Assembly: GCA_027627705.1 (NCBI GenBank)
Contig: CP091242.1
Coordinates: 62,001 to 126,000, forward strand
Direction: 5' to 3'
DNA: 64,000 nucleotides
From: Hyphomonadaceae bacterium BL14
GTDB lineage: Bacteria > Pseudomonadota > Alphaproteobacteria > Caulobacterales > Maricaulaceae
Each line of letters begins with the position of its first letter. Positions within the stretch are counted from its first letter, which is position 1. Both the position numbers and the translations under genes were made by a program. The notes beneath the pieces were generated by a model that saw nothing but the letters and a program-made list of their open reading frames with translations, was not told the origin of the DNA and did not search any database. Of the stretch, positions 5,787-41,228 are shown piece after piece.

Positions 5787-6725
5787 ATGGACAAGACACT
5801 TCTCATAGCGGCGGTCGTAATTGGCATGCTGGTGGCCGTGGGTGTCTGGCTGTGGACGCCGGATCTGTCGCGTGAGCGGCTGGAGGCGGCGTATTTGCGT
5901 TCTGCCTCGGACATGATGGACGTGGAGGGCGCGCGCCTGCATGTGCGTGTCGACGGGCCGGACGCCGGGCCTGCGCTCATCATGATCCACGGGTTCGGCT
6001 CAAGCCTGCACACCTGGGACGACTGGGCTGCCGCGCTGTCGGACCGGTACCGTGTGGTGCGGTTCGATCTGCCCGGCTCCGGCCTGTCGCCGCCGGACCC
6101 GACGGGCCGCTATGACGATGCGCGCGCGTTTGAACTCCTCCTTGGACTGATGGCCCGGCTGGGCATTGGCGAAGCGGCGATCATCGGCAACTCCGTCGGT
6201 GGCCGCATCGCCTGGTCGTTCGCCAGCGCGCATCCGGACCGGGTGTCGCGGCTGGTCCTGGTCGCGCCTGACGGTTTTGCCAGCTTGGGATTTGAATATG
6301 GCGAAGCACCGGAGATCGGCGCGGTAACCCATGCCATGCGCGTGATCCTGCCGCGCTTTCTGGTGAAGATGAATCTGGATCAGAGCTACAGCGATCCCGG
6401 CAAGCTCGAAGCCGATGTGGTGACGCGCTATCACGCGCTGCTGCGCGCGCCCGGTGCGCGCCTGGCCCTGATCCAGCGCATGGAGCAGACGATCTTGACC
6501 GACCCGCTGCCGCGCCTGCGGGCGCTGCAGACGCCGGTGCTTTTGCTCTGGGGCGAGGATGACCGTCTGATCCCGATGTCCAATGCGCAGGACTATCTGG
6601 GCGCGTTGCCGGACGCGCAGCTGACCGCATTGCCCGGAGTGGGGCACCTGCCCCAGGAGGAGGCGCCGGATATGAGCCTGGTTTCAGTCGACGCTTTTCT
6701 GCGCGCGTTAAGGGATGGCTCATGA
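5787..6725 (+). CDS. Membrane-anchored alpha/beta hydrolase
   Basis: A 312-aa alpha/beta-fold hydrolase with an N-terminal hydrophobic anchor (about residues 4-23) and then the hydrolase fold. The oxyanion strand HGFGSS is at about 68-73. The nucleophile elbow GNSVGG gives Ser136, the acid is in WGEDD (D258 or D259), and the catalytic His is in GVGHLPQEE (His287). The body should face the periplasm. The substrate cannot be told. Its stop overlaps the start of the next gene by 4 bases (ATGA), so the two are probably co-translated. Confidence 0.85.
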   Translation: MDKTLLIAAVVIGMLVAVGVWLWTPDLSRERLEAAYLRSASDMMDVEGARLHVRVDGPDAGPALIMIHGFGSSLHTWDDWAAALSDRYRVVRFDLPGSGLSPPDPTGRYDDARAFELLLGLMARLGIGEAAIIGNSVGGRIAWSFASAHPDRVSRLVLVAPDGFASLGFEYGEAPEIGAVTHAMRVILPRFLVKMNLDQSYSDPGKLEADVVTRYHALLRAPGARLALIQRMEQTILTDPLPRLRALQTPVLLLWGEDDRLIPMSNAQDYLGALPDAQLTALPGVGHLPQEEAPDMSLVSVDAFLRALRDGS

Positions 6726-8011
6726 CCGGCGCAGGCTTGGGGAAGGGGCCTGACGCTGACGGTGTCACCGCGCCGGCGGTGCGCGAGCCGGTGGCGCGTC
6801 ATCTGTGTACCGATTGCGGTGTATCGAGGATGGAGGACCCGAAAGCCTGCGGGCGGGCCTGCCAGTTCATCAAGCCGGACTATGAGCGCTTGGAAACGAA
6901 AGTGCATGGCCGCACCCGCGATCCGGCGCGTCCCGACGAGCTGCATTTCGGGCCCTTCCGCCGCATGGTTCGCGCTTCGCTGAAAGCCCCGCGTCCGGGT
7001 GCCCAATGGACCGGCATTACGACGCGCCTGGCCGAGCGCCTGCTGGAGCGGGACGCCGTGGATGTGGTGCTGACCATGGCACCGGACCCCGAGGACCGGT
7101 GGAAGCCGGTGCCGGTTCTGGTGACCAAGGCAGAGGGCATGGCGCAGGTGCGCGGCATGCGCATGGGCTATGCGCCGCTTCTGGCGCTGCTCGAACCGGT
7201 GCGCGAGCGTGGTTACAGGCGCGTCGCCGTCATCGGCATTCCGTGTCAGGTCTATGCGCTGCGCGAACTTGAGGAAGAGCTAGGCCTCGAGAAGCTGTAT
7301 GTTATCGGTACCCCGTGCTCGGACAATACCACCACCGAGCGCTTCCATGATTTTCTGGCGCTCCTGTCCGACCAGCCCGGGACCATCACCTATCTGGAGT
7401 TCAGGGCCGATTATCAGGTGGAGCTGCGGTTCGAGAACGGGCAGGTCAAAACCATCCCCTTCCTGAAGCTGCCGATCTCCAAACTCCCGCCCGATTTCTT
7501 CCCGCTCACCTGCCGCACCTGCGTGGATTACACCAATGTGCTGGCCGACATCACTGTGGGTTATATGGGCGGGCAGGGCGAGCAATGGCTGCTGGTGCGC
7601 AATGAGACCGGCGAGGAACTGATCTCGCTGATCGAGGGCGAGGTGACGCTGGCCGAGCCGGGCTCGGCGGGCAAGCGCCAGTCAGCCGTCACGGGTTTCA
7701 TTGCCAATACCGAGCGCGCGGCGGGCGGGCTCCCCTTGCGCGGCATGCCGGACTGGGTGCGGCCTCTGGTGGCCTGGCTGATGCCAAGGATCGGGCCGCG
7801 GGGCCTGGAATTTGCCCGCGCGCGCGTCGAGATGAAGGCGTCAGAGACGGTGCTGCACCTGCGCCGCCAGGAACAAAGGCGCATGAAGTCCATGATCCCC
7901 GATCATGTCTGGCGGCTGGTGGCACCCTATGGGCTCACGCCCGAGCCCGGCGAGCAGGCCGGCAATGATGCGGATGCCGCACAGGACGCGCCGCCAGATG
8001 TAGTCGGGTAG
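6722..8011 (+). CDS. FrhB/BciB/HCAR-family iron-sulfur flavoprotein reductase
   Basis: The product is 429 aa. An N-terminal cysteine set (C29, C32, C43, C47) is followed by the F420-hydrogenase beta-subunit N and C domains: GIPCQVYALRELE, GTPCSDNT, and a late CRTCVDYTN.LADI.VGYMGG. The last motif, followed by QWLLVRN, is characteristic of the branch with plant 7-hydroxymethyl-chlorophyll a reductase and bacterial BciB, the ferredoxin-dependent 8-vinyl reductase. Those enzymes bind FAD and two [4Fe-4S] clusters and take electrons from ferredoxin. No bacteriochlorophyll genes lie in this window, so a role in pigment synthesis is not shown and another substrate is possible. It overlaps the upstream hydrolase gene by 4 bases. 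Confidence 0.8.
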   Translation: MTGAGLGKGPDADGVTAPAVREPVARHLCTDCGVSRMEDPKACGRACQFIKPDYERLETKVHGRTRDPARPDELHFGPFRRMVRASLKAPRPGAQWTGITTRLAERLLERDAVDVVLTMAPDPEDRWKPVPVLVTKAEGMAQVRGMRMGYAPLLALLEPVRERGYRRVAVIGIPCQVYALRELEEELGLEKLYVIGTPCSDNTTTERFHDFLALLSDQPGTITYLEFRADYQVELRFENGQVKTIPFLKLPISKLPPDFFPLTCRTCVDYTNVLADITVGYMGGQGEQWLLVRNETGEELISLIEGEVTLAEPGSAGKRQSAVTGFIANTERAAGGLPLRGMPDWVRPLVAWLMPRIGPRGLEFARARVEMKASETVLHLRRQEQRRMKSMIPDHVWRLVAPYGLTPEPGEQAGNDADAAQDAPPDVVG

Positions 8012-8160: not shown

Positions 8161-8574
8161 ATGAGTGTATTTCGGGCCATCTACACTTCCCGGCCCTTCG
8201 GATTCGACACCGGTCTGTTGCGCAGCGTCCTGATGGACGCCCGCCGCTGCAATACGCGCGACGGCATCACCGGTGCCCTGATCTGCCGCGCGGACATTTA
8301 CCTGCAATGGCTTGAGGGTCCGGAAGAGCTGGTTCGCCGCACGCTGGAGCGCATCAAGCGCGATGACCGCCATCTCGAGGTCAAGCTTCATGTGGCCGAG
8401 ACCGTGCCCGGGCGGGTGTTCGGCGAATGGGCCATGCTTCACGATCCGTCGACCACGTGGATATGGACCCAAGATGAGGTGACGGCGGGGGCCGCAGAGC
8501 GCGCAACCCCTGACGAGGTAACCGGCTTTTTCCTGAAGCTGCGCGAAGAAAGCCGGACGCCGGAAGCGGGCTGA
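8161..8574 (+). CDS. BLUF-domain blue-light photoreceptor
   Basis: A 137-aa protein made almost entirely of a BLUF domain (about residues 3-95). The residues that form the FAD photocycle are in the expected places: Tyr8 (RAIYTS), Asn31 (CNTRDGITGALI) and Gln49 (YLQWLEG), and FGEWAM supplies the usual Trp/Met near residue 90. BLUF domains bind FAD and shift their hydrogen-bond network on blue light. This is a short stand-alone type with no output domain, so it must act by protein-protein contact, as other short BLUF proteins do. The partner is unknown. It lies between the FrhB-family gene and the propionyl-CoA synthase gene, all in the same direction. Confidence 0.93.
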   Translation: MSVFRAIYTSRPFGFDTGLLRSVLMDARRCNTRDGITGALICRADIYLQWLEGPEELVRRTLERIKRDDRHLEVKLHVAETVPGRVFGEWAMLHDPSTTWIWTQDEVTAGAAERATPDEVTGFFLKLREESRTPEAG

Positions 8575-8764
8575 CGTGATCAGGCGGCTGTGTCCGAAGT
8601 CAGACCGGTTTTGTTGCAAAGCAACAGATGGACGGATGAACTCACGTAAGCTAGCGTTTACGAAAGTTTCGGCCTGCCCGGGCGGACCAGCCCGAATGTG
8701 GCGGGCAATAAAAAGCGCCGCCGGCCATTCTTGTCTGGCATAGGCGCGACCGGGGGGACGAGCT

Positions 8765-11700
8765 TTGACCAACAAGATTGCAGTGCCTCCTGTTGCCGCG
8801 CGCAATGAAGTCGTTGACGCCAAGGCCTGGACCGCCATGCGCGAGGCCTGCCTGGCGGATCCGGGTGCATTTCATGGCGCGCTGGCCAAGCGCCATCTGG
8901 CCTGGCTGATCCCCGATCAGGGCGAAAGTGGCGTCTGGGCGCAGCTCGACCGCGATAGCGGGACCTGGCGGGGATGGGATGCGGCGACAGCAGCGCCAGT
9001 GACGCTGGACCTGCCCGAAACGTTCGAGCCCTGGGATCAGGCGTTCAATGCCTCGGACGCGCCGAGCTGGCGTTGGTTCGAGGGCGGGCTGACCAATGCC
9101 GCCTTCAATGAGGTGGACCGCCATGTGCTGGCCGGTCATGGTGATGAAGCGGCGCTGATCTTTGAAGGCGACCGCTGGAACATGTCCAGCGATGGGGGGC
9201 GCGGCGGACCGGTGGACAGCTATCCGGTGTCGCGCAAGACCCTGCTTCTGGAGAGCGCCAAGTGCGCGCTGGCGCTCAAAGCGCTGGGCCTGAAGCCCGG
9301 CGACCGCATCGCGCTGAACATGCCCAATATCCCGCAACAGATTTTCTGGACCGAGGGCGCCAAGCGCCTGGGCGTGATTTACACGCCGGTGTTCGGGGGC
9401 TTCAGCGACAAGACGCTGTCGGACCGCATCGCGGACGCCGGTGCGCGCGTCATCGTGACGGCGGACGGCACGTATCGCAACGCGCAGCTGGTGCCGTTCA
9501 AGCCCAGCTATACCGACCCGGCGCTGGACAATTTCATCGCGGTTAGCGTCGCCAAGTCGATCTTGGCCGAAACCCTGGCGAACCCGGCGCTGCAGATCAG
9601 TGCCGAGGATGCTGCGCGCATCACCGCCGCCGTGGACGAGACGCTGGCGGGAGAAGTGACGGTGGAGCGATCCGACGTCATGCGCGGCGTCGGGCGGGCC
9701 CTGTCGGAAATGGGCCAGACCGGATCGATCAGCGCCCGGCAGGCTGCTGATCTGCGCATTGCGGCGGCGGCCGCGCTGGTGGATTCGCCCGCGCGCGCGG
9801 ATACCGTCATCGTGGTGCGCCATACCGGCCAGGCGGAGCTCAACTGGACCGCGTCGCGCGACCGCTGGAGCCATGAGCTGACGGATGCCGCCGGCGACAC
9901 CCTGCTCAAGGCCGCGCGCGCCGCCGGGTTTGATGTGGCCGATGAAGCGGCCCTGCTGGCGCTGCCCGATGGCGAGTTTGTGCGGGCGGTCTGGGCCGCG
10001 TCCAGGCCGCTGCCGGTGGACGCGGAATACCCCAATTTCATCATCTACACTTCGGGCTCCACGGGTAAGCCCAAGGGCGTGGTCCATGTCCATGGCGGCT
10101 ATTGCGCCGGGATCGCGGCGACCATGGAGGTCGCGTTCGATGCCGCGCCGGGCGATGTCATGTTCGTGGTGGCTGATCCGGGCTGGATCACCGGCCAGTC
10201 CTATCTGATCGCCGGAGCGCTGCTGACGCGCGTCACCTCGATCATCGCCGAGGGCTCGCCGGTGTTTCCTCATGCGGGGCGCTTCGCCTCGATTATCGAG
10301 CGCCACAAGGTCAACATCTTCAAGGCCGGGGTTACCTTCCTGAAATCGGTCATGCAGGACCCGGAAAACCTCAACGACATCAAGACCTATGATCTGTCAG
10401 GCCTGAAGGTCGCCACGTTCTGCGCCGAGCCGGTCTCGCCCGCCGTGCAGGCCTTCGCCATGGAGCATGTGGCCCCCTGGTACATCAATTCCTACTGGGC
10501 GACCGAGCATGGCGGGATCGTCTGGACGCATTTCTATGGTGCGCAAGATTTTGCCCTGCGCCCAGACGCCCACACCTATCCGCTGCCGTGGATTGTCGGC
10601 GATGTGTGGGTGGAGGACGCCGGTGCCACCAAGCCGGACGCGGGCGCAGACGTGCTGACGCGCGGCGAGACCCAGGGTGCGCCCTGGCGGCGTGCAGACA
10701 AAGGCGAGAAGGGCGAGATCGTCATTGCGCTGCCCTATCCGTATCTGGCGCGCACGATCTGGGGCGACACACAGAATTTCGTGGTGGAATCCGACGGTCC
10801 CGGCGCGCGCGTGCAAGCGGGCTGGCGAGGCGATTCCCGGCGCTATGGCGACACCTACTGGCGGCGCTGGCGCGGGGCATGGGCCTATACGCAAGGCGAT
10901 TTCGCCATTGCCCATGATGACGGCTCGTTCTCGCTGCATGGCCGCTCGGACGATGTGATCAATGTCTCGGGTCACCGTATCGGCACCGAGGAGATCGAAG
11001 GCGCGATCCTGCGCGACAAGGCGCTCGATCCCAACTCGCCCGTGGGCAATGTGCTGGTTATCGGCGCGCCGCACCGCGAGAAGGGCGTGACCCCGGTGGC
11101 CTTTATCACCCCGGCGGCGGGCGCGAAACTGACCCTGGACGACAAGCGCCGGCTCACAGACCTCGTTCGGACCGAAAAAGGCGCGGTCGCCGTGCCGTCA
11201 GACTTCCTGGAAGTGCCGGAGTTTCCCGAAACCCGTAGCGGCAAATATATGCGCCGCATGGTGCGCGCGATCGTGGAAGGCGGCGAGGTGGGCGACATCT
11301 CCACCTTGCGCAATCCCGAAAGCCTCGACGCCTTGCGCCGCGTGGTGGAGGACTGGGCGCGCCGCCAGAAGCGCTCTGAAGAGCAGGCTTTGTTCGAGCG
11401 TTACCGCTATTTCCTGGTCCAATACAACGCCGCCGCCAAGGGCAAGCGGGTGGCCACGGTCACGGTCAACAACCCGCCGGTGAACGCGCTGAACGAACGC
11501 GCCATCGACGAGTTGGCCACCATAGTGGAGCACTTGTCGCGCAAGGATGATGTGGCCGCCGTGGTGTTCACGGGTTCCGGCTCCAGCTCCTTCGTGGCGG
11601 GCGCGGACATTCGCCAGATGCTCGAGGAGGTCAACACGCTGTCCGAGGCGATGGCCCTGCCCAGCAACGCCCAGCTGGCCTTCGGGCGCATCGAAATGAT

Positions 11701-14269
11701 GAACAAGCCTTGCATCGCGGCGATCCAGGGCCTGGCGCTGGGCGGGGGCATGGAGTTTGCGCTGGCGTGCCACTACCGCATCGCCGAGCCGACGGCGCGT
11801 TTCGGCCAGCCGGAGATCAATCTGCGGCTTCTGCCGGGCTATGGCGGCACGCAGCGTCTGCCGCGCCTGCTGGCCGACCGCAATCCGGAGACCGGCCTGC
11901 GCGATGCGCTGGACCTGATCCTGGGCGGACGCGCGATTGACGCCGGTGCCGCCCTGTCATTGGGTGCCATCGACGCCGTGGCGGACGGCCCAACAGATGC
12001 CCTGTCGCTGGCTCATGCTGCCGTGCGCGATTTCGTACGTGATCCCGATGGCAGCGCGCTGGGCCGGGCCTTCACTGAACGCCGCGCTGCCACGGAACGC
12101 TGGGCCAAGCCCGGCGAGGCCGATCTGGATGCGGCGCTGGCCGATGATTTCGTGCAGCGCATCCTGCGTCAGCTGGACTGGGCCGGGCGGGGCAAGGCGG
12201 GAGCGCGCGCGCTGGACGCCATCACCACCGGCTGGCGCTCGGGGATGGCAGAAGGTTTGCAGCGCGAGGCCGAGGCCTTCGCCGAAGCGATCATGGACCC
12301 CGAGGGCGGCAAGACCGGCATCCGCCTGTTCATGGACAAGCAGGCACCACCTTTGCCTGTTCGCCGCGATGGCGTGTGGATCGATGAAGCGCATGAACCG
12401 CGCAAGGCCGCGCTGATCGGGGACGGCGAGATGCTGGCGCTGGGCGCGCCCTTCTATCCCGGCATCACGCCGATCCCGCCCTACCAGCTGGCCTTCGGGA
12501 TTGCGCGCGACCCTGAGACCGGCGCGCCGCGCTTCGGTCCGCCGGCCACGCACGAAAAGGAGCTGATCGTTCCGGTGCGCCTGCCCGAGCCCAATGAGGC
12601 GCTGGTCTACATGCTGACCTCGGAGGTCAATTTCAACGATAACTGGGCGCTAACCGGCATTCCGGTCTCGCCGTTTGACGGCCATGACGAGGACGTCCAG
12701 ATCACCGGCTCGGGCGGTCTGGCTCTGATCGCAGCCCTGGGGACCGAGGCCAAGGCCGAAGGCCGGCTGAAAGTCGGTGACCTGGTCAATGTCTATTCGG
12801 GCACCAGCGAGCTGTTGTCCCCGGCGGCGGGCGAGGACCCGATGTATGCCGGCTTCGCCATCCAGGGCTACGAGACCAAGACCGGCAGCCACGCCCAGTT
12901 CCTCAATGTCCAGGCACCCCAGCTCCATGTTCCGCCTGCGGACCTGACGCTGGAGCAGGCGGGCGCGTATACACTGAACCTGGGCACGATCACGCGCTGC
13001 CTGTTCACCACGTTGCAGATCACGCCGGGCAAAACGATTTTCGTCGAGGGTGCCGCCACCGGCACCGGACTGGATGCGCTCAAAAGCAGCGTGCGCACCG
13101 GGCTGGCGGCCACGGGGCTGGTGTCCAGCGAGGACCGTGCGGACTTCATCAAGACCCAAGGTGCCGTTGGGGCTATCAATCGCAAGGACCGCGCAATCGC
13201 GGACGCTTTCACGCCGGTCCCCGACGATGCCGAAGAGGCCAGGGCCTGGGAAGCGGCGGGACTGCCGATCCTGGAACGCTACAAGGCCATGAATGATGGC
13301 AAGCTTGCCGATTATGTGGTGAGCCACGCCGGCGAGCGTGCCTTCCCCAGAAGCTTCCAGCTCCTGGCCGAGGGCGGCGCGCTGGCCTTTTACGGCGCGT
13401 CGTCGGGGTATCATTTCAGCTATATGGGCAAATCGGGCGAGGCCTCGCCCGCCGACATGCTGGCGCGCGCCGGCCTGCGCGGCGGGGAATCGGTGCTGCT
13501 CTATTACGGGGCGGGGTCCGGCGAGCTGGCCGATCCCAAGGGGCTGGAGATGATCGAGGCGGCGCGCCTGTTCAAGGCGCGCATCGCGGTGGTCACCTAT
13601 TCCGACGCCCAGCGTGAATTCCTGCAATCGCTGGGGCTGGAAGATGCAGTCGAGGGTGTGATCTCTATTGAGGGCCTGAAACGCCGGGACGCTGATTTCC
13701 ACTGGCCGCTCACCCTGCCGCGCCTGCCGGACGCCAAGACCGAGACCGAAGCGTTCAAGCGCGGCGTGCGCGACTACCAGCAGAATACGCTCAAACCCTT
13801 CGGGTCGGCGGTGGGCAGGCTGTTGCGCTCACCGGGCAATCCGCGCGGGGCACCGGATCTGGTGATCGAGCGTGCGGCGGTGGATACGCTGGGCGTCTCG
13901 TCTTCGCTGGTGCGCCCGTTCGGCGGCCGTGTGGTCTATGCCGAGGACATGTCCGGCCGGCGCTTCACTTTCTACGCTCCCCAGGTCTGGACGCGCCAGC
14001 GGCGCATCCTGATGCCCACCGCTTCGATCCTGGGCACGCATTTGTGCAACGCCTACGAGGTCACGGTCATGAACTCCATGATCGCGGCGGGCCTGCTGGA
14101 CGTGACCGAACCGACCATGACCCCTTGGGAAGACCTGCCCAAGGCCCATCAGGCGATGTGGGACAATGCCCATTCGGGGGCGACCTATGTGGTCAATCAC
14201 GCCTTGCCGGCGGCGGGTTTGCGCAGCCGGGACGAGTTGTTGGAGCATTGGGCAGCGGCCGGGGATTAA
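8765..14269 (+). CDS. pcs: Trifunctional propionyl-CoA synthase (3-hydroxypropionate to propionyl-CoA)
   Basis: This 1834-aa fusion has three enzymes in order. Residues 1 to about 860 form an acyl-CoA synthetase, with the AMP-binding loop YTSGSTGKPKG at 428-438 and the late lysine K827 in GKYMRRM. Residues about 880-1200 form an enoyl-CoA hydratase, with Glu997 in GGGMEFAL and Glu1017 in GQPEINLRLLPGYGG. Residues about 1240-1834 form an NADPH-dependent acrylyl-CoA reductase, with NADP loop EGAATGTGL. This order, the length and long blocks of near identity match propionyl-CoA synthase of the Chloroflexus 3-hydroxypropionate bi-cycle. It activates 3-hydroxypropionate, dehydrates it and reduces acrylyl-CoA within one polypeptide. 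The start is TTG behind GGGGGG; this gives an N-terminus (ADPGAFHGAL) that aligns with the family. The malonyl-CoA reductase gene follows 45 bases downstream. Confidence 0.96.
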   Translation: MTNKIAVPPVAARNEVVDAKAWTAMREACLADPGAFHGALAKRHLAWLIPDQGESGVWAQLDRDSGTWRGWDAATAAPVTLDLPETFEPWDQAFNASDAPSWRWFEGGLTNAAFNEVDRHVLAGHGDEAALIFEGDRWNMSSDGGRGGPVDSYPVSRKTLLLESAKCALALKALGLKPGDRIALNMPNIPQQIFWTEGAKRLGVIYTPVFGGFSDKTLSDRIADAGARVIVTADGTYRNAQLVPFKPSYTDPALDNFIAVSVAKSILAETLANPALQISAEDAARITAAVDETLAGEVTVERSDVMRGVGRALSEMGQTGSISARQAADLRIAAAAALVDSPARADTVIVVRHTGQAELNWTASRDRWSHELTDAAGDTLLKAARAAGFDVADEAALLALPDGEFVRAVWAASRPLPVDAEYPNFIIYTSGSTGKPKGVVHVHGGYCAGIAATMEVAFDAAPGDVMFVVADPGWITGQSYLIAGALLTRVTSIIAEGSPVFPHAGRFASIIERHKVNIFKAGVTFLKSVMQDPENLNDIKTYDLSGLKVATFCAEPVSPAVQAFAMEHVAPWYINSYWATEHGGIVWTHFYGAQDFALRPDAHTYPLPWIVGDVWVEDAGATKPDAGADVLTRGETQGAPWRRADKGEKGEIVIALPYPYLARTIWGDTQNFVVESDGPGARVQAGWRGDSRRYGDTYWRRWRGAWAYTQGDFAIAHDDGSFSLHGRSDDVINVSGHRIGTEEIEGAILRDKALDPNSPVGNVLVIGAPHREKGVTPVAFITPAAGAKLTLDDKRRLTDLVRTEKGAVAVPSDFLEVPEFPETRSGKYMRRMVRAIVEGGEVGDISTLRNPESLDALRRVVEDWARRQKRSEEQALFERYRYFLVQYNAAAKGKRVATVTVNNPPVNALNERAIDELATIVEHLSRKDDVAAVVFTGSGSSSFVAGADIRQMLEEVNTLSEAMALPSNAQLAFGRIEMMNKPCIAAIQGLALGGGMEFALACHYRIAEPTARFGQPEINLRLLPGYGGTQRLPRLLADRNPETGLRDALDLILGGRAIDAGAALSLGAIDAVADGPTDALSLAHAAVRDFVRDPDGSALGRAFTERRAATERWAKPGEADLDAALADDFVQRILRQLDWAGRGKAGARALDAITTGWRSGMAEGLQREAEAFAEAIMDPEGGKTGIRLFMDKQAPPLPVRRDGVWIDEAHEPRKAALIGDGEMLALGAPFYPGITPIPPYQLAFGIARDPETGAPRFGPPATHEKELIVPVRLPEPNEALVYMLTSEVNFNDNWALTGIPVSPFDGHDEDVQITGSGGLALIAALGTEAKAEGRLKVGDLVNVYSGTSELLSPAAGEDPMYAGFAIQGYETKTGSHAQFLNVQAPQLHVPPADLTLEQAGAYTLNLGTITRCLFTTLQITPGKTIFVEGAATGTGLDALKSSVRTGLAATGLVSSEDRADFIKTQGAVGAINRKDRAIADAFTPVPDDAEEARAWEAAGLPILERYKAMNDGKLADYVVSHAGERAFPRSFQLLAEGGALAFYGASSGYHFSYMGKSGEASPADMLARAGLRGGESVLLYYGAGSGELADPKGLEMIEAARLFKARIAVVTYSDAQREFLQSLGLEDAVEGVISIEGLKRRDADFHWPLTLPRLPDAKTETEAFKRGVRDYQQNTLKPFGSAVGRLLRSPGNPRGAPDLVIERAAVDTLGVSSSLVRPFGGRVVYAEDMSGRRFTFYAPQVWTRQRRILMPTASILGTHLCNAYEVTVMNSMIAAGLLDVTEPTMTPWEDLPKAHQAMWDNAHSGATYVVNHALPAAGLRSRDELLEHWAAAGD

Positions 14270-14314
14270 AGGCCGCCCGCCATACCGATTTTTTGAGTGA
14301 CCAGGAGAGCTTTC

Positions 14315-17300
14315 ATGGCCGGCAAGACCCGCGACGTCGCAGCGCCTCAATCCCGCTCCTCCGGCGCGGGCCGATTGGATGGAAAAACCGTCCTGATCAC
14401 GGGTGCAGCGGGCAATCTTGGCAGTGAGATGGCGCGCCGCTTCGCCGATGAAGGGGCCACGCTGATCCTGACCGGGCGCACGCGCGACCGCATCGAGGCG
14501 GCATGCGCGGATGTGGTGGCCCGGACCGGCGTTCCCGCGGAGCGCGTTGCCCCTTTGGTGCTCGACGGTGGTGATCCGGGGTCTGTGCGTGCGGCGATGG
14601 ACGAGGTTAAGGCGAAGTTCGGCCGCATCGACGTGCTGGTCAACAATGCCGGATCGGCTGGTCCCAAGCAGCCCCTGGACAATGTCCCGCTGTCGAAAGC
14701 CGAGATGGAGGCCAATGGCGATACCGAGACGGTCGGCGACGCCATGCGCAACATTCTGGCGGTCACCTGGAATCTGGCGCGCGCGGCGGCTGATCTGATG
14801 CCCGCGGGTGCAGCGATCATCAATATCTCCACGATTTTCTCCCATACGCGCTATTACGGTCGCATCGCCTATGTGGTGCCCAAGGCCGCACTGAATGCGC
14901 TGTCGCGGCAGCTGGCCAGCGAGTTCGGCGCGCGCGGCGTGCGGGTGAACACCGTGTTCCCCGGCCCCATCGAGAGCGAGCGCATCCGCACGGTCTTCGC
15001 GGCGATGGACAAGGTTCAGGGCAATGAGGACGGCGAGACCGCCGACTATTTCATGGGCCGCATGTCGCTACGCCGCAGCGTCGATGGCGCGCCGCCCGCG
15101 CGCACCCTGCCGACCCCGGCCGACATCGCCCAGACCTGCCTGTTCCTGGCGAGCGAGGATTCGGCTGCGCTCAACGGCGCGGAGATCGATGTCGCTCACG
15201 GCATGAGCGTGCGCAAGGAGTCGCGCTCCACCTACAAGACCCGGCCCTCCTTGCGGGCGCTGGATGGGGCCGGCCTGACCGTACTGATCGTGGCGGGCGA
15301 GAGCTGGGATGATGCGCTGGAGACGGCGCGCATCCAGATCGGCTGTGGCGCGCGTGTGCTTCTGGGCATGGCCCGTGAAGCCGACGTGGCACAGGCCAGG
15401 GCCCGCACCCAGGCGCAAGGCCTGGTCGACGGCCTGACCATTGTGCGCTTCAACCGCACCGAGCCGGAAACCATGGGCGAGACGCTGGACGCCTACAGTG
15501 TGCAGCACGGCCCGGTGACCAGCGCCATCGTGCTGCCGCTCAAGCCGGCGCAATACTTCGCCGGGGCCCTGCTCGACGCCGAAGACGCGACCGTGGACGA
15601 GTTCATGGATGTGGAGCTGGTGGGCGGTATCGCCATCGCCCGCGCCCTGTCGCGCTACTGGAAGACCCGCAGCGATCTTGAACAGCCGCCGCGCTATGTC
15701 TTCATGAGCAACGCCAGCGACGGCGCGGGCGATGTGTACAGCCAGGTGCTCACCGCCGCGATGACCCAGCTGATCCGCATCTGGCGCGACGAAGCACGCG
15801 TGGATGTGGAGGCAGGCCGCTTCCCCCATGCTGTATGGGGCAATCAGATTGTGCGCTTCTCCAATCGTGAGCGCGAGAATATCCGCTTCGCCGCCGGCCA
15901 TGCGACCCGCATCGTCTTCAAGGAGCAGAGGATCGCCAATATCGATCTGCATGTGCCCGAGAAGATCGGCGAGGAGACCGGTGCCACCAGCGCCATGGTC
16001 GGCTTTGCCGAGAACATTACCGGCCTGCATCTGGGCAAGGTCGCCCTGATCACCGGCGGCTCTGCCGGGATTGGCGGACAGGTGGCGCGCCTGCTCGCGC
16101 TGGCCGGTGCCAAGGTGATGATGGTCGCCCGGCGCGCCAGCGAACTGGAAGCGGCGAGAGATCGCATCATCGGCGAGCTTCAGGATATCGGCTTTTCCGG
16201 CGTGGAGCGCCGGGTGCGCATCATGGCCGATGTGGATGTCAGTGATTTCGCGTCGCTCAAAACCGCGCTCGACGCCACGATCGCGGCGTGGGGCCGGGTG
16301 GACTATCTGATCAATAATGCCGGGGTCGCCGGAGCCGAGGACATGGTCGTCGACATGGACCTCGACGCCTGGCGCTTCACCCTCGATGCCAATCTGATTT
16401 CCAATTATTACCTGACACACCATGCGGCGCCGCTGATGAAGGCGCAGGGCGGTGGCTATGTGCTGAACGTATCGTCCTATTTCGGGGGCGAGAAGCTGCG
16501 CGCCGTGGCCTACCCCAACCGGGCCGACTACGCCGTCTCCAAGGCCGGCCAGCGCGCCATGGTGGAAAGCTTCTCGCAGTTTCTCGGCCCCGTGATCCAG
16601 CTAAATGCCATTGCGCCGGGCCCTGTGGATGGTGACCGCCTGTCCGGCGTGGGCGGCAAGCCGGGCCTGTTCCAGCGCCGGGCGCGTCTGATCCTGGAGA
16701 ACAAGCGCCTCAACTCGGTCTATGCCGAGGTGATCAAGTCTGTGCGCGAGGGCGCGTCTGTGGCCACTGTGCTCAACCGGCTGTCGCACAATACCGCGGG
16801 CGTTCTGTCCCATGACATGCTGGCACCGGCTGGCCTGCGCAAGCTGGCGCTGAAAATCGCCCGGGAAGGCGATGGCGTCTGCACATGGGATCAGTACATC
16901 CTGACCCCGGCGCTGGCCGAACGTCTCCTGTCGCGCTTGCGTCTGGGCGGGTATCTGCTGGACGTGCCGGCCTGGCGCGACCTGCCCGGGGACAAGGCCA
17001 AGGGCGGCTGGCTGCGCATTACGCCGCCGGACGATGCGCCCTTCCTGCCGCAGGGCCTGATCAACAAGAACGCCGAGCAGATCGGAGAGGGCGTGTTATC
17101 CCAGTTGCATCTGGGCAAGATGCCTACCGAGGCCGATGTGGCCCAAGCGACGGTGTTCTATCTGGCTGACCGGGCGGTCAGCGGCGAGACCTTCATGCCG
17201 TCCGGCGGTCTGAATGTGGAGCGCTCCACGGTGGAGCGCGACATGTTTGGTGGGCCGCGCCCGGAACGTGTCGAGAAGCTGCGTGGCAAAACGGTCTGGT

Positions 17301-17995
17301 TTGCCGGTGATCATCTGGCCGACTACATCGCTGCGGCCTCCCAGCGCCTGATCGACGAATGCGGTGTGGCCGGGGTGGTCGTCCTGGCGCGCACCAAGGT
17401 GGGCGGCAAGGCGGTCACGGACATGATCACCGGCGAGGCGGCCAGGTCGGTCCATGTGGTCGTGTCCGGCGATATTATCGAGGATGCCATGGACACTGCG
17501 CTGGCCAAATGGGGCCGGCCCGCCACCGTGGTGTCGCTGCCCGGCGACGCGCTGCCCGACCGCCTGTTCGAGGATGATGCGCCGCTGACGCCTGAAGCCT
17601 TCAGCCAGGTGGTGGAGGACAATCTGACCCGGCATTTCCGGGTGTCGCGCAAGGCCTCTCTCTATGACGGGTGCCAGCTGGTACTGGTGTCGCCGGATGT
17701 GGCGGTGGGCGCCAATGCCCCGGCCCACGCCATCGCCAATTTCATCAAGACAACCCTGCACGCCTTCACGGCTACGCTGGCGGTGGAGAATGAGCGACTG
17801 GTGCACAATGTGCCGACCAATCAGATCAACCTCACGCGCCGCGTGCGCTCGGAAGAGCCGCGCAACGAGGAAGAGCACCAGGAAGAGCTGCGCCGCTTCG
17901 CCACGGCCATTTTGCTGGTCGGGGCACCGCTGCCCGATTCCCAGGATTCACGCTATCGCTCGCGCATCTATCGCGGCACGTCGATGACGGTCTAG
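14315..17995 (+). CDS. mcr: Bifunctional malonyl-CoA reductase (malonyl-CoA to 3-hydroxypropionate)
   Basis: The product is 1226 aa, close to the roughly 1220 aa of the Chloroflexus enzyme. The ATG at 14315 follows AGGAGA; a GTG 18 bases upstream is less likely. It has two halves built of short-chain dehydrogenase folds. The N-terminal half has T29GAAGNLG and Y186-V-V-P-K190; it reduces malonate semialdehyde to 3-hydroxypropionate. The C-terminal half has T580GGSAGIGG and Y739-A-V-S-K743; it reduces malonyl-CoA to the semialdehyde. Each half also contains a second, degenerate SDR-like unit. The C-terminus RIYRGTSMTV resembles the family end. Both steps use NADPH. Its product is the substrate of the upstream enzyme, so the two genes form one pathway module. 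Confidence 0.95.
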   Translation: MAGKTRDVAAPQSRSSGAGRLDGKTVLITGAAGNLGSEMARRFADEGATLILTGRTRDRIEAACADVVARTGVPAERVAPLVLDGGDPGSVRAAMDEVKAKFGRIDVLVNNAGSAGPKQPLDNVPLSKAEMEANGDTETVGDAMRNILAVTWNLARAAADLMPAGAAIINISTIFSHTRYYGRIAYVVPKAALNALSRQLASEFGARGVRVNTVFPGPIESERIRTVFAAMDKVQGNEDGETADYFMGRMSLRRSVDGAPPARTLPTPADIAQTCLFLASEDSAALNGAEIDVAHGMSVRKESRSTYKTRPSLRALDGAGLTVLIVAGESWDDALETARIQIGCGARVLLGMAREADVAQARARTQAQGLVDGLTIVRFNRTEPETMGETLDAYSVQHGPVTSAIVLPLKPAQYFAGALLDAEDATVDEFMDVELVGGIAIARALSRYWKTRSDLEQPPRYVFMSNASDGAGDVYSQVLTAAMTQLIRIWRDEARVDVEAGRFPHAVWGNQIVRFSNRERENIRFAAGHATRIVFKEQRIANIDLHVPEKIGEETGATSAMVGFAENITGLHLGKVALITGGSAGIGGQVARLLALAGAKVMMVARRASELEAARDRIIGELQDIGFSGVERRVRIMADVDVSDFASLKTALDATIAAWGRVDYLINNAGVAGAEDMVVDMDLDAWRFTLDANLISNYYLTHHAAPLMKAQGGGYVLNVSSYFGGEKLRAVAYPNRADYAVSKAGQRAMVESFSQFLGPVIQLNAIAPGPVDGDRLSGVGGKPGLFQRRARLILENKRLNSVYAEVIKSVREGASVATVLNRLSHNTAGVLSHDMLAPAGLRKLALKIAREGDGVCTWDQYILTPALAERLLSRLRLGGYLLDVPAWRDLPGDKAKGGWLRITPPDDAPFLPQGLINKNAEQIGEGVLSQLHLGKMPTEADVAQATVFYLADRAVSGETFMPSGGLNVERSTVERDMFGGPRPERVEKLRGKTVWFAGDHLADYIAAASQRLIDECGVAGVVVLARTKVGGKAVTDMITGEAARSVHVVVSGDIIEDAMDTALAKWGRPATVVSLPGDALPDRLFEDDAPLTPEAFSQVVEDNLTRHFRVSRKASLYDGCQLVLVSPDVAVGANAPAHAIANFIKTTLHAFTATLAVENERLVHNVPTNQINLTRRVRSEEPRNEEEHQEELRRFATAILLVGAPLPDSQDSRYRSRIYRGTSMTV

Positions 17996-18013
17996 GCAGG
18001 CGGCGCAGGGCCT

Positions 18014-18661
18014 TTAATCGGCCCGGGCGACCTCGATCATCACCTCGTTGCGCCGCATCGGGGTGGGGGTCCAGGGCGGGTTGTAGCGGGCATAGACCGG
18101 CTCGCCGATGATCTCGTAGCCCTCAGCCGCGAGGAAAGCGGCGAGCTCTTCAGCCTTGCGCGCAAAGCGTGACTCGTTTGGACCGCCCGAAAAGCGGATC
18201 GCGGCCAGGCGTCTGGCCGGTTGCTCGCGGATGATCACATCGGGGTCGTTGGGACGGGGCAGCGTCTCCATCGTCCAGCTTTCCGGCATGATGAACGCCA
18301 CGCGCCATGTTTCGCCGTCGCCCGCTGTGCGGCTCTGCGTAACGGGAGAGGTCATGGCGATGCGCTCTGACCTGGACTGGATCACCGGGGTTGTCATGGC
18401 GATATTGGCGCTGCTGTCTTCGCCGGGTGCCTGATTGTCGCCGAAGATGAACCCGGCCAGCGGGCGGAAGCCCTGATTGCCGGCCCTGGTCATGTCGCCG
18501 CTGACTTCGACTTCCGCGAGGATCAGAGCGGGATAGTCACGAACCTCGATGGCACCCTGCGCGCGCACCAGCACATAGGACGGTTCATCAGAGGCTTTGG
18601 CTTGGGATGAGGCGGCGGTGACCATGATAAGGACCAGAATTGAGCGGAGCATGTGGATCAT
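18014..18661 (-). CDS. SOUL-family heme-binding-like exported protein
   Basis: The product is 215 aa from the ATG at 18661, which has AGGAG seven bases ahead. A hydrophobic N-terminus (MLRSILVLIMVTAASS, cut likely before DEPSY) marks export. The rest is a SOUL domain: YVLVRAQGAIEVRDYPALILAEVEV near the start, GFRPLAGFIFGDN, repeated IAMT(T/S)PV motifs, WRVAFIMPESW, and a final YARYNPPWTP. Eukaryotic SOUL/p22HBP proteins bind tetrapyrroles; the bacterial ones have no settled role. It is convergent with the malonyl-CoA reductase gene, with 18 bases between. Confidence 0.88.
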   Translation of the reverse strand: MIHMLRSILVLIMVTAASSQAKASDEPSYVLVRAQGAIEVRDYPALILAEVEVSGDMTRAGNQGFRPLAGFIFGDNQAPGEDSSANIAMTTPVIQSRSERIAMTSPVTQSRTAGDGETWRVAFIMPESWTMETLPRPNDPDVIIREQPARRLAAIRFSGGPNESRFARKAEELAAFLAAEGYEIIGEPVYARYNPPWTPTPMRRNEVMIEVARAD

Positions 18662-19634: not shown

Positions 19635-21290
19635 ATGACCACGGTCGCTGCAGGCAAGAAAACTGGTTTTGATTACAATGCGATGGTGGTGCTTGGCATC
19701 TGCATCGCGGGGGCAGTCTGGGCGATTCTGGCGGCTGCCATTGGTGCCGATGCGGCCATGCGCATCCATGCGTGGCTAATCCTGGCGGGCTTTCTGACCG
19801 GGATTCTGATCCTGGTCGGTGCCTATTCGAATGGCGGCGTGGACGTCGACAAGCGCGAGTACAACGAATCAATCGTGCGCTATGGCGTGATTGCGTCCAT
19901 GTTCTGGGCCATTGTCGGCATGCTGGTAGGGGTGATTATCGCCGCCCAGCTCGCCTGGCCGACCCTGTTCCAGTTCGAAGCCTTCCCGCAGATCAATTTC
20001 GGGCGCCTGCGCCCTGTGCACACGTCGGGCGTGATCTTCGCCTTTGGCGGAAATGTGCTGATCGCCACCAGCTTCTACGTCGTCCAGCGCACCTCGCGGG
20101 TGCGCCTGGCGGGCGGGGTGTGGCCCTGGTTTGTTTTCTGGGGCTATCAGTTCTTCATCGTCATGGCGGCCACCGGATATCTGCTGGGCATCACCCAGTC
20201 GAAGGAATACGCCGAGCCCGAATGGTATGCTGATATCTGGCTGACGCTTGTGTGGGTCGCCTATCTCCTGGTCTTCCTGGTGACGCTGGCGCGGCGCAAA
20301 GAGCCCCACATCTATGTGGCCAACTGGTTCTACCTCGCCTTCATCGTCACCATCGCGCTGCTGCATGTGATCAACAATCTGTCCATGCCGGCCGACTGGT
20401 TCGGATCGCGCAGCTATTCGGCCTTCGCCGGAGTGCAGGACGCCATGACCCAGTGGTGGTACGGCCACAACGCCGTGGGCTTCTTCCTGACGGCCGGCTT
20501 CCTGGGGATCATGTACTACTTCATCCCCAAGCGCGCCGAGCGGCCGGTGTTTTCATACCGCCTGTCCATCGTGCACTTCTGGGCGCTGATCTTCATCTAT
20601 ATCTGGGCGGGCCCGCACCACCTTCACTACACCGCGCTGCCCGAATGGACGCAGACGCTGGGCATGACCTTCTCGATCATGCTGCTTATGCCCAGCTGGG
20701 GTGGCATGATCAACGGCCTGATGACCCTGTCGGGTGCCTGGGACAAGCTGCGCACCGACCCGGTCATCCGCATGCTGGTGGTGTCGGTGGCCTTCTATGG
20801 CATGTCGACATTCGAAGGCCCGGTCATGAGCATCAGGGCGGTCAACTCGCTCTCGCACTATACTGACTGGACCATTGGCCACGTGCACTCGGGCGCGCTG
20901 GGTTGGGTGGGCTTCATCTCCTTCGGGGCGATCTACTGCCTGGTGCCCTGGCTATGGAAGCGCAAGTCTATGTTCTCGCGCGCCCTGATCGAATGGCACT
21001 TCTGGCTCGCGACGCTTGGCATCCTTCTCTACATCACGTCGATGTGGGTGTCGGGCATCATGCAGGGCCTGATGTGGCGCGCCTATAACGAGCTCGGCTT
21101 CCTGGAATACTCCTTCATCGAGACCGTCGAGGCGATGCAGCCCTACTACATCATCCGTGCCGGGGGCGGGCTGCTGTACCTGGTCGGCGCACTGCTCATG
21201 GCCTGGAATGTCTACAAGACGATCCGGGGTGATGTGGCCGACGTCGAGGAAGTCGCCGCCCAGCAGACGCTCCAGAAGCCTGCGGAATAG
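19635..21290 (+). CDS. ccoN: cbb3-type cytochrome c oxidase subunit I
   Basis: A 551-aa polytopic membrane protein, the catalytic subunit of the high-affinity terminal oxidase. It should carry heme b, heme b3 and CuB. Histidines are in the expected family motifs: [28 protein letters not shown] and [10 protein letters not shown]. About 12-14 hydrophobic segments are visible. The ATG follows a strong AAGGAGG. It is the first gene of an eight-gene block (ccoNOQP then ccoGHIS) in standard order, with ccoO 12 bases downstream. Confidence 0.97.
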
Positions 21291-21302
21291 GGGAAAAACA
21301 CA

Positions 21303-22061
21303 ATGGCCAAGAAACCCAATCCGATCTGGAACTGGCACAAGCGGGTGATGGAGAAGAATTCGCTTCTCCTCACTGTGGGCATTATCGGCGTCGTCTCCAT
21401 CGGCGGGCTGGTGGAAATTACCCCGCTCTTCTATCTCGACGAGACGATCGAAGAGGTCGAAGGGGTGCGCCCCTATTCGCCGCTCGCACTGATGGGCCGG
21501 GACATCTACATCCGCGAGGGCTGCTACACCTGCCACTCCCAGATGATCCGGCCGCTGCGCGACGAGGTGGAGCGGTACGGGCATTACTCGCTGGCCGCCG
21601 AAAGCATGTATGACCGGCCGTTCCAGTGGGGGTCCAAACGCACCGGCCCGGACCTGGCGCGCGTGGGTGGCAAGTACTCTGATGAATGGCATCGCGATCA
21701 CATGCGCGATCCGCGCTCGGTGGTGCCCGGCTCGATCATGCCGCCCTACGCCATGCTTGAGCGCACCCCGCTTGAGCTGGAGGTGATTCCGGGGCGCATG
21801 CGCGCGCTGCAGCGCCTGGGTGTGCCCTACACAGACGAGATGATTGAGCTGGCCATCGACGATGTGCGCACACAGGTCGATCCGTTTGCATCCGGCTATG
21901 ACGCTTTCCTGGCGCGCTATCCCGGTGCCCCGGTGCGCAATTTTGATGGCAATGAGCGCGTGGTAACCGAGCTCGACGCCATGATCGCCTATCTGCAGGT
22001 GCTCGGTACCATGGTGGATTTCTCCACCTATGAAGCCGACGCCGACGTCAATCTGAGGTGA
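21303..22061 (+). CDS. ccoO: cbb3-type cytochrome c oxidase subunit II (mono-heme)
   Basis: The product is 252 aa: one N-terminal membrane anchor (about residues 20-42) and a periplasmic mono-heme c domain. The heme site is C74-Y-T-C77-H78, and the axial Met is likely in [10 protein letters not shown]. It passes electrons between CcoP and the CcoN active site. A good GGGG-rich Shine-Dalgarno precedes the ATG. ccoQ starts 6 bases after its stop. Confidence 0.97.
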
Positions 22062-22067
22062 CCGGCG

Positions 22068-22268
22068 ATGTATGAAGCCCTTGCCAGTTTCGCGCAGTCT
22101 TGGGGCCTGGTCGCCTTCATGGCCTTCTTCATCGGGGTCATCGCCTACGCCGTCTGGCCGAAGAACCGCGAAAAATTCAATGCCGCCGCCCATTCGGTGC
22201 TGGACGAAAACGCTCGCCCCGCCGAGGCCGACAAACCGGCCGACACGAAGGAAGACCGCCATGGCTGA
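22068..22268 (+). CDS. ccoQ: cbb3-type oxidase small subunit CcoQ/FixQ
   Basis: The product is 66 aa with one membrane helix (about residues 9-29, ending AVWPKNREKF) and an acidic, hydrophilic C-terminal tail. Length, position between ccoO and ccoP, and the W-P-x-N-(R/K) helix end fit CcoQ, which stabilises the oxidase complex. Its 3' end overlaps the ccoP start by 8 bases, so translation of the two is probably coupled. Confidence 0.93.
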   Translation: MYEALASFAQSWGLVAFMAFFIGVIAYAVWPKNREKFNAAAHSVLDENARPAEADKPADTKEDRHG

Positions 22269-23220: not shown

Positions 23221-23262
23221 CGGACGAAAGGCGCGCCGGTCGCCGGCGCGCGGAGGCAGGTC

Positions 23263-24753: not shown

Positions 24754-25244
24754 CCCGAAGCGAAGACACACCGACGCGCCGCCGCGAATTTCGTCTGACA
24801 GGATGGCATGTGCTGGCGATTCTGCTGGCCTTTTTCGGCGTGGTGTTCTCGGTGAACGGGTTTTTCATCACATCGGCGCTCACCACCTTTACCGGCGAGG
24901 AGGCGACGCGCGCCTATGTGCGCGGGCTGGAATACAATGCGGTGCTGGACGCACGCCGCGCCCAGGCCGAGTTGGGCTGGAGCGCCGCGGTCAATGTGGC
25001 TGACGGGCGCGTGCTGGTCAGCGTGACCGATCCTGACGGTGCGCCTGTGGGCGGACTGGACCTCTCCGGCGAGTTGCGCCGTCCAGGAGACCCGCTGCTG
25101 GACCGGCCGCTGACATTTTCTGAAATCCGCGCGGGCGTCTATGCTGCGCAGAGTGAAGATATGGTGATCGGCCGCTGGCTGGTGCGCGTCCGCGCGGCGG
25201 GCGATGACCCGTTCGAGCTGGAGCGCGATGTGTGGCTGCAATAG
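24750..25244 (+). CDS. ccoH: FixH/CcoH cbb3 oxidase assembly protein
   Basis: The product is 164 aa with one N-terminal membrane helix (about residues 18-38) whose end, GVVFSVNGFFI, matches FixH proteins. A periplasmic domain follows with LGWSAAV and a final ERDVWL. FixH/CcoH is needed for stable assembly of the cbb3 complex. It overlaps ccoG by 4 bases and ccoI by 13 bases, so all three are tightly coupled. Confidence 0.92.
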   Translation: MTRSEDTPTRRREFRLTGWHVLAILLAFFGVVFSVNGFFITSALTTFTGEEATRAYVRGLEYNAVLDARRAQAELGWSAAVNVADGRVLVSVTDPDGAPVGGLDLSGELRRPGDPLLDRPLTFSEIRAGVYAAQSEDMVIGRWLVRVRAAGDDPFELERDVWLQ

Positions 25245-41107: not shown

Positions 41108-41192
41108 GCGGGTGTGGCGGAACTGGTAGACGCGCTGGATTTAGGTTCCAGTGGGGCGACCCGTGGAGGTTCGAGTCCTCTCACCCGCACCA
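41108..41192 (+). tRNA. tRNA-Leu (anticodon UAG)
   Basis: The 85 bases fold as a class II tRNA. The acceptor stem GCGGGTG pairs with CACCCGC (41182-41188). The anticodon stem CTGGA/TCCAG encloses the loop TTTAGGT with anticodon TAG, which reads CUN leucine codons. The long variable arm is GGGGCGACCCGT-like, and the T arm is GAGG-TTCGAGT-CCTC. Discriminator A and an encoded CCA (41190-41192) are present. An 85-bp repeat array begins 36 bases downstream. Confidence 0.97.
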
Positions 41193-41228
41193 TCTTTACA
41201 AGTGCTCACGCCCGTCCGGGCGTTCGCG

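What the first reader, a model, noticed from the sequence alone, without database searches (positions are those of the whole stretch)
8765..17995. Complete malonyl-CoA to propionyl-CoA arm of the 3-hydroxypropionate bi-cycle in an alphaproteobacterium
Two adjacent same-strand genes encode full-length propionyl-CoA synthase (1834 aa, three active domains) and malonyl-CoA reductase (1226 aa, both halves with intact cofactor and YxxxK motifs). These enzymes define the first half of the Chloroflexus CO2-fixation bi-cycle. Homologues are known in a few marine aerobic bacteria such as Erythrobacter sp. NAP1, where their purpose is unclear. Every catalytic motif I could place is intact, so the pair is not decaying. 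Possible uses are assimilation of 3-hydroxypropionate (for example from DMSP or acrylate breakdown), a sink for malonyl-CoA and NADPH, or net bicarbonate fixation through acetyl-CoA carboxylase. In the seen sequence nothing proves autotrophy.
Basis: partly seen in the sequence, partly recalled or inferred. Interest (0 to 1): 0.85.

Follow-up and report, generated by a model that had tools for sequence, protein, structure and literature searches.

The report
Half a CO2-fixation cycle in phototrophs
Two adjacent genes in this Oceanicaulis-like bacterium encode the enzymes that turn malonyl-CoA into propionyl-CoA, a known pair that in the related genomes checked here sits almost only in light-harvesting bacteria, which suggests that light pays for extra CO2 uptake rather than for self-sufficient growth on CO2.

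Summary
PCS (8765-14269) and MCR (ATG at 14315, end 17995; 1226 aa) are full length and intact; solved structures of both match along their whole length. The pair itself is known. The genome (one 3.03 Mb contig, Oceanicaulis group) carries PufL/PufM, methylmalonyl-CoA mutase, a PccB-like gene and isocitrate lyase. No Chloroflexus-type malyl-CoA lyase or mesaconyl-CoA transferase was found, so the bi-cycle looks incomplete. The new part is comparative. Of 63 MCR-positive genomes examined, 58 carry reaction-centre genes; in a follow-up set of sphingomonads it was 34 of 36 against 5 of 44 MCR-negative controls. MCR and PufLM trees disagree, so the two were not simply inherited together. In 14 of 53 genomes an acetyl/acyl-CoA carboxylase gene follows MCR directly. 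Best reading: a light-paid side route, acetyl-CoA + 2 HCO3- to succinyl-CoA, for CO2 co-assimilation. My own idea that it replaces the glyoxylate shunt is refuted (ICL in 26 of 27 MCR-positive genomes). The pair is a new member of a known kind; the link to phototrophy and the carboxylase operons make its purpose testable.

The parts
8765..14269 (+). propionyl-CoA synthase (3-hydroxypropionyl-CoA ligase / dehydratase / acryloyl-CoA reductase), 1834 aa from a TTG start
   Evidence: (full length to PDB 6eqo, 3184 bits)
14315..17995 (+). bifunctional malonyl-CoA reductase, 1226 aa, ATG at 14315 preceded by AGGAG (frame open from GTG 14297)
   Evidence: (8hi4, 8hjw, 6k8s, 6k8v)
8161..8574 (+). BLUF blue-light sensor protein directly upstream, same strand
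   Evidence: PF04940; next to PCS also in L001 and within a DNA block aligned to G227
6722..8011 (+). FrhB/FdhB-family gene, BciB-like (8-vinyl reductase of bacteriochlorophyll synthesis; the name BciB is recalled)
   Evidence: PF04422/PF04432; best solved relative is chloroplast 7-hydroxymethyl chlorophyll a reductase 5dqr, 230 bits
18014..18679 (-). convergent gene that bounds the pair on the right (SOUL-type by eye; not scanned against any library)

Best explanation
[quoted passage not shown] Together with acetyl-CoA carboxylase, propionyl-CoA carboxylase and methylmalonyl-CoA mutase they form a linear route: acetyl-CoA + HCO3- to malonyl-CoA, then to 3-hydroxypropionate (2 NADPH), then to propionyl-CoA (1 NADPH, ATP to AMP), then + HCO3- to methylmalonyl-CoA and succinyl-CoA. 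In this presumed aerobic anoxygenic phototroph the route most likely runs when light supplies ATP and spares respiration. It turns each acetyl-CoA into a C4 unit with two bicarbonates added, next to the glyoxylate shunt and not in place of it. Shown: identity and integrity of both enzymes; presence of PufL/M, methylmalonyl-CoA mutase, a PccB-like gene and ICL; no match of Chloroflexus-type Mcl and Mct; association with phototrophy; carboxylase genes directly behind MCR in some relatives. Inferred: direction of flux, light dependence, and that PccA and methylmalonyl-CoA epimerase, which I did not look for, are present.
For: Both enzymes full length with conserved catalytic motifs. PufL/M at C1:1840264-1841923, amid genes that by eye are a bacteriochlorophyll/puh cluster. 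MutB 1235 bits, above its NCBIfam cut-off; MutA-like small subunit and the PccB-like protein are best matches below the NCBIfam cut-offs but over Pfam's. AccA present; an AccD-like match. MCR in 9 of 398 genomes of the order, all 9 PufLM-positive, against 61 of 398 overall. Follow-up family: 34 of 36 newly tested MCR-positive genomes PufLM-positive against 5 of 44 MCR-negative controls; Fisher p 9e-15, not corrected for relatedness. MCR and PufLM trees conflict: MCR data reject one clade of the 8 rows of this order (p-AU 3e-48) and of the 22 sphingomonad rows (5e-9); PufLM data reject the 14-row MCR clade (9e-4) and, weakly, Burkholderiales + f5 (0.037), so shared ancestry alone does not explain the association. 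AccA follows MCR within 53 nt in 10 sphingomonad genomes, and a ~1800-aa biotin carboxylase/carboxyltransferase within 247 nt in 4 of 4 Burkholderiales genomes; 14 of 53 genomes in all. In print: in Porphyrobacter ULC335, 3HP bi-cycle genes are up by day and CO2 co-assimilation is proposed (PMC10674011, passages); propionyl-CoA formation by 3HP reactions is proposed as a way to refill the TCA cycle during acetate photoassimilation (PMC8307300, passages).
Against: No flux, enzyme or light data exist here for this organism. Five MCR-positive genomes have no PufLM match (G404, G412, G413, G437, G605); their completeness is not told, and real exceptions are possible (G404 has an intact pair). My MCR-positive genomes are all relatives of the window's MCR; PMC9802188 (section 7) reports key 3HP enzymes also in Actinobacteriota and Gemmatimonadota MAGs, without naming photosynthesis there, and proposes assimilation of organic substrates for the former. 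Two phototrophs of the same genus (G173, G262) lack MCR, so phototrophy does not require it. No carboxylase gene is next to the pair in the window, nor directly behind MCR in 39 of the 53 genomes (the window's own among them). PpsR-type sites (TGTN12ACA) are not enriched upstream of PCS: 1 of 39 loci, against 4 of 41 downstream of MCR and 17 of 430 background windows. The pair lies far from puf in this genome.
Confidence: 0.62

Rival explanations
1. Redox and carbon overflow valve: the pair mainly burns NADPH and malonyl-CoA when light or fat oxidation over-reduces the cell; carbon gain is a by-product.
For: Three NADPH per turn (known chemistry); found mostly in phototrophs.
Against: An overflow route would not need a dedicated carboxylase gene behind it, as 14 of 53 genomes have, and the product propionyl-CoA can be carried on by MutA/B and a PccB-like enzyme in this genome.
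Confidence: 0.15
2. Assimilation of external 3-hydroxypropionate or acrylate (for example from DMSP), with PCS as the main enzyme.
For: PCS alone converts 3-hydroxypropionate to propionyl-CoA (known chemistry).
Against: MCR is not needed for this, yet PCS sits directly before MCR in 41 of 43 loci (one of the other two starts inside MCR); carboxylase genes extend the row in some relatives. DMSP and acrylate genes were not searched.
Confidence: 0.08
3. Full autotrophic 3-hydroxypropionate bi-cycle.
For: MCR, PCS, methylmalonyl-CoA mutase, AccA and a PccB-like gene are present.
Against: PF03328 matches in the genome are one 273-aa CitE-like protein (best named family RipC/Ccl, 223 bits, below its cut-off of 375; only 59 bits to 4l7z, by recall the Chloroflexus lyase) and two matches inside frames of 953 and 562 aa. 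The four CoA_transf_3 proteins score 103, 81 and 68 bits, and the fourth is not listed, against the mesaconyl-CoA isomerase cut-off of 725.
Confidence: 0.03
4. Replacement of the glyoxylate shunt for growth on acetate.
For: The route makes C4 from acetyl-CoA, as the shunt does.
Against: Tested: isocitrate lyase is present in this genome (C1:328898-330130) and in 26 of 27 MCR-positive genomes, but in only 15 of 48 MCR-negative phototrophs of the order (I counted matches with E <= 1e-18, and G415 by two contig-edge pieces).
Confidence: 0.03
5. Supply of propionyl-CoA for odd-chain or branched lipids or polyhydroxyalkanoate.
For: Propionyl-CoA is the direct product.
Against: Among the neighbour families that recur in 43 loci I saw no lipid or PHA genes by eye; does not explain the link to phototrophy.
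Confidence: 0.06

Closest known systems
PCS of Erythrobacter sp. NAP1 (PDB 6eqo; strain name recalled) and MCR of Porphyrobacter (6k8s, 6k8v; source recalled)
   Same: Full-length alignment, domain order, catalytic motifs; an adjacent PCS-MCR pair is also the rule in the sphingomonad genomes seen here.
   Different: The host here is an Oceanicaulis-group bacterium of another order; the site has a BciB-like gene and a BLUF gene beside it.
3-hydroxypropionate bi-cycle of Chloroflexus aurantiacus
   Same: MCR and PCS chemistry of the first half.
   Different: In Chloroflexus mcr (Caur_2614) and pcs (Caur_0613) are apart and genes of the second half are listed (PMC3150298, passages); here the pair is adjacent and no Mcl/Mct was found.
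Porphyrobacter sp. ULC335, day-induced 3HP bi-cycle genes with proposed CO2 co-assimilation (PMC10674011)
   Same: Aerobic anoxygenic phototroph with key enzymes of the same pathway; same proposed use.
   Different: That paper studies one strain; the passages I read hold no test across genomes.
Phototrophic Burkholderiales MAGs with 3HP bi-cycle genes (PMC9802188)
   Same: Predicted photosynthesis together with 3HP genes (section 7 read).
   Different: There the glyoxylate-arm genes are reported in one operon; the one-chain carboxylase behind MCR seen here in L015, L016, L017 and L022 is not mentioned in the section I read.

Membership tests
propionyl-CoA synthase | Ligase, hydratase and reductase domains fused in one ~1800-aa chain, alignable end to end with a solved PCS | tested here: met
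propionyl-CoA synthase | Catalytic motifs conserved | tested here: met
   (38 proteins; motif roles recalled)
propionyl-CoA synthase | 3-hydroxypropionate- and NADPH-dependent activity | not testable with these tools
   needs enzyme assay
bifunctional malonyl-CoA reductase | Two SDR halves, each alignable with solved MCR halves, both YxxxK motifs | tested here: met
complete 3-hydroxypropionate bi-cycle | Methylmalonyl-CoA mutase | tested here: met
complete 3-hydroxypropionate bi-cycle | Propionyl-CoA carboxylase and methylmalonyl-CoA epimerase | tested here: inconclusive
   PccB-like protein at C1:396170; PccA and epimerase not searched
complete 3-hydroxypropionate bi-cycle | Malyl-CoA/methylmalyl-CoA/citramalyl-CoA lyase of Chloroflexus type | tested here: not met
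complete 3-hydroxypropionate bi-cycle | Mesaconyl-CoA C1:C4 transferase | tested here: not met
aerobic anoxygenic phototroph | PufL/PufM and a bacteriochlorophyll gene cluster | tested here: met
   PF00124 over cut-off, two genes; bch/puh/acsF genes recognised by eye, not scanned
aerobic anoxygenic phototroph | Bacteriochlorophyll made and light benefits growth | not testable with these tools
   needs culture

The most novel reading that the evidence does not exclude
In Proteobacteria the PCS-MCR pair, with or without its own acetyl-CoA carboxylase gene, is a light-paid carboxylation module. Anoxygenic phototrophs have gained it repeatedly and separately from their reaction-centre genes, and it adds CO2 to acetyl-CoA in many phototrophic sphingomonads, in Oceanicaulis and in Burkholderiales. 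If so, half of the bi-cycle is a widespread and so far uncounted mode of light-driven CO2 uptake that is not autotrophy.
Probability: 0.5. Interest if true: 0.72.

Novelty: new member of a known kind. Interest (0 to 1): 0.52.

Why it matters
The near-restriction to phototrophs, the separate gene histories and the attached carboxylase genes point to one answer, and it can be tested in culturable sphingomonads. If light drives this route, phototrophic bacteria add more CO2 to biomass than respiration-based budgets assume.

Tried and rejected
Replacement of the glyoxylate shunt: my first hypothesis, refuted. Full bi-cycle: the cluster at G000:C1:2.506-2.512 Mb looked like a second arm (two CoA transferases, acyl-CoA dehydrogenase, MaoC, CitE-like), but its hydratase and lyase have the itaconate-type RipB/Ich and RipC/Ccl as best named families, below cut-off. 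Shared PpsR control: no motif enrichment. Recent mobility: the repeats shown for 8300-18400 (20 of at least 60 direct families, 25 of 123 inverted pairs) do not mark the ends of an element, and composition is as in the window; the 4.1 kb extra in G227 after MCR holds, by eye, thiolases and a carotenoid-oxygenase-like gene, not an insertion sequence. Plasmids: no record among the 5000 best covers 80% of MCR (limit reached). The pyruvate-carboxylase-like gene (by eye) 2.2 kb from MCR in L003 is a single case and not counted. Promoter and terminator scan: nothing above shuffles. Not done for lack of searches: PccA, epimerase, RuBisCO, DMSP and acrylate genes, the empty site in MCR-negative genomes, and whether the MCR-linked AccA is a second copy.
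Full report
What is there. The frames 8765-14269 and 14297-17995 on the + strand are real, long and intact. The first is propionyl-CoA synthase: ACAS_N, AMP-binding, AMP-binding_C, enoyl-CoA hydratase and zinc-dehydrogenase domains in order, and 3184 bits over residues 18-1832 to solved PCS 6eqo (the PDB calls that chain acetyl-coenzyme A synthetase, the name PCS is recalled). The second is the two-part malonyl-CoA reductase: 1117 bits to 8hi4 over residues 24-1232, and strong matches to 6k8s and 6k8v for the two halves (the PDB calls them short-chain dehydrogenases, the name MCR is recalled). The ATG at 14315, with AGGAG in front, gives 1226 aa. In 38 PCS and 40 MCR full-length proteins from 42 loci given, the motifs that carry catalysis are invariant (roles recalled).

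Where it sits. The window is C1:62001-126000 of a single-contig genome of 3,031,807 bases. Three same-genus genomes coincide by contig coordinates with records named Oceanicaulis (G366 = L004, G128 = L020) or Maricaulaceae (G034 = L003), so the host is of the Oceanicaulis group. Directly upstream of PCS lie a BLUF blue-light sensor and a BciB-like reductase whose best solved relative is chloroplast 7-hydroxymethyl chlorophyll a reductase. This arrangement is shared with L001 and, in an aligned block, with G227. In L002, L003, L004 and L020 of the same genus the flanks, as far as held, are different. The genome has PufL and PufM, and the surrounding 60 kb hold what by eye are bch, crt, puh and acsF genes.

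What else the genome has. The large subunit of methylmalonyl-CoA mutase is clear, and the small subunit next to it is over Pfam's cut-off but below NCBIfam's. Of six carboxyltransferase matches, four are full-size genes, of which C1:396170 scores by far best to the MmdA/PccB-like family (763 bits, cut-off 999); one of the two partial matches is AccA (read), the other AccD-like and not checked. Isocitrate lyase is at C1:328898-330130. The only malyl-CoA-lyase-type match of about the right size is a 273-aa CitE-like protein closest to the itaconate lyase RipC (223 of 375 bits), in a cluster with a RipB/Ich-like hydratase and CoA transferases. No CoA transferase comes near the mesaconyl-CoA isomerase cut-off. 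So acetyl-CoA to succinyl-CoA is encoded as far as I looked (PccA and epimerase were not searched), and a Chloroflexus-type glyoxylate arm was not found. By simple bookkeeping this cannot give net autotrophy, because acetyl-CoA is not regenerated (inference).

Link to phototrophy. In the order, MCR was found in 9 of 398 genomes and PufL/M in 61 of 398; all 9 are among the 61. In the genus, 7 of 14 have MCR (one frame-broken, G128) and all 7 have PufL/M; of the 7 without MCR, 2 have PufL/M. For 18 further MCR-positive genomes reached through named records, 15 have PufL/M. As a follow-up test I searched the family of G401: 39 of 397 have MCR; of the 36 not yet tested, 34 have PufL/M, against 5 of 44 MCR-negative controls (20 of these controls were the first listed and 24 were spread by handle number). 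Without double counting, 58 of 63 MCR-positive genomes have PufL/M. The exceptions are G404, G412, G413, G437 and G605. G437 has MCR on two contigs. G412 (L019) has a frame-broken MCR beside an IspH-like gene (by eye) with no PCS in the 3.8 kb upstream. G404 (L011) has an intact pair. Fisher tests are and ignore relatedness. All these genomes were found with the window's own MCR, so carriers with distant MCR (Actinobacteriota and Gemmatimonadota in PMC9802188) are outside this count.

Not just common descent. MCR and PufLM trees for 39 genomes (41 for PufLM) conflict. The f5 genomes of this order group with Burkholderiales for MCR but not for PufLM. Four sphingomonads and four other alphaproteobacteria group with Oceanicaulis for MCR, while for PufLM these sphingomonads stay with other sphingomonads and three of the four others go with Burkholderiales. 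Approximately-unbiased tests reject the alternatives (MCR: 3e-48 and 5e-9; PufLM: 9e-4 and 0.037; the PufLM groups were named after seeing the MCR tree; quick trees, LG+G4). Distances still correlate (Spearman 0.45, Mantel p 0.001), as expected with partly shared descent. Within the genus the MCR tree follows the PufLM tree.

The carboxylase clue. Among 43 loci (one per genome, the window included) PCS is directly upstream of MCR in 41; L022 starts inside MCR and L019 is the exception. Of 53 distinct genomes with at least 900 bases downstream (80 loci; duplicates removed by hand), 14 have a carboxylase gene directly after MCR on the same strand: AccA in 10 sphingomonads (0-53 nt; identified above cut-off for L014, the others by similarity) and a ~1800-aa biotin-carboxylase/biotinyl/carboxyltransferase chain in 4 Burkholderiales (11-247 nt; domains scanned for L015, the others by similarity). 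One more, G487, has AccA 2.1 kb downstream. The window itself has none. These two attachments look independent and fit flux from acetyl-CoA through malonyl-CoA.

Results against simple stories. The pair does not replace the glyoxylate shunt: isocitrate lyase is in 26 of 27 MCR-positive genomes (G034 has no match) but in 15 of 48 MCR-negative phototrophs of the order (four more phototrophs were left out by the handle limit), possibly because whole families without ICL also lack MCR. No enrichment of PpsR-type sites. Two phototrophs of the genus lack the pair.

What is in print. PMC10674011 (passages) reports day-induced 3HP bi-cycle genes in Porphyrobacter ULC335 and proposes CO2 co-assimilation. 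PMC8307300 (passages) lists propionyl-CoA formation by 3HP reactions among ways to refill the TCA cycle during acetate photoassimilation. PMC9802188 (section 7) reports 3HP genes with predicted photosynthesis in Burkholderiales MAGs. PMC12700997 (passages) describes phototrophy across this very order, including Oceanicaulis (Alkalicaulis), with the Calvin cycle in some; the term 3-hydroxypropionate does not occur in its main text. PMC11089705 (passage) suggests 3HP use by bloom-associated phototrophs, with propionyl-CoA carboxylase not detected. PMC6593406 (passages) describes the reverse case, symbionts with the rest of the bi-cycle but no MCR or PCS. In the searches I saw no paper whose title or abstract start reports a genome-wide association test or the carboxylase operons; most subscription papers are not held.

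Verdict. As enzymes the pair is a new member of a known kind. The most likely use, light-paid CO2 co-assimilation from acetyl-CoA to succinyl-CoA, is supported by association and operon evidence but not shown.

Noticed in passing
L015:13729-19203, also L016, L017, L022 downstream of MCR: A ~1800-aa one-chain biotin-dependent acyl-CoA carboxylase in phototrophic Burkholderiales (L015 scanned: biotin carboxylase, biotinyl and carboxyltransferase domains, with about 640 residues between the last two matching no Pfam model); unusual architecture for bacteria (recalled).
   Followed up: partly
G000:C1:2499241-2512042 (L060:1242-14043): Itaconate-type gene set (CoA transferases, acyl-CoA dehydrogenases, RipB/Ich-like, RipC/Ccl-like) near a LeuCD-like pair and a methylisocitrate-lyase-like gene; possible C5-dicarboxylate pathway.
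   Followed up: partly
window 41228-41792: Tandem array of an 85-base unit, 6.6 copies, 99% matches, just after a tRNA gene at 41108-41189.
   Followed up: partly
window 54093-54183: Glycine riboswitch (RF00504, 68.6 bits) upstream of what by eye is a glycine-cleavage gene set.
   Followed up: no
window 19635-27424: cbb3 oxidase genes (CcoN, CcoO, CcoP, CcoG, copper-ATPase) soon after the pair; high-affinity respiration in a phototroph.
   Followed up: no
G262 (same genus): Two separate PufL/PufM pairs in a one-contig genome without an MCR match; one pair may be of other origin.
   Followed up: no
L020/L058 (G128) and L019 (G412): MCR split by a change of frame in draft genomes; could be assembly error or decay.
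   Followed up: partly
L060:5442-7985: 847-aa protein that reads as a fused aspartate kinase / diaminopimelate decarboxylase (by eye).
   Followed up: no
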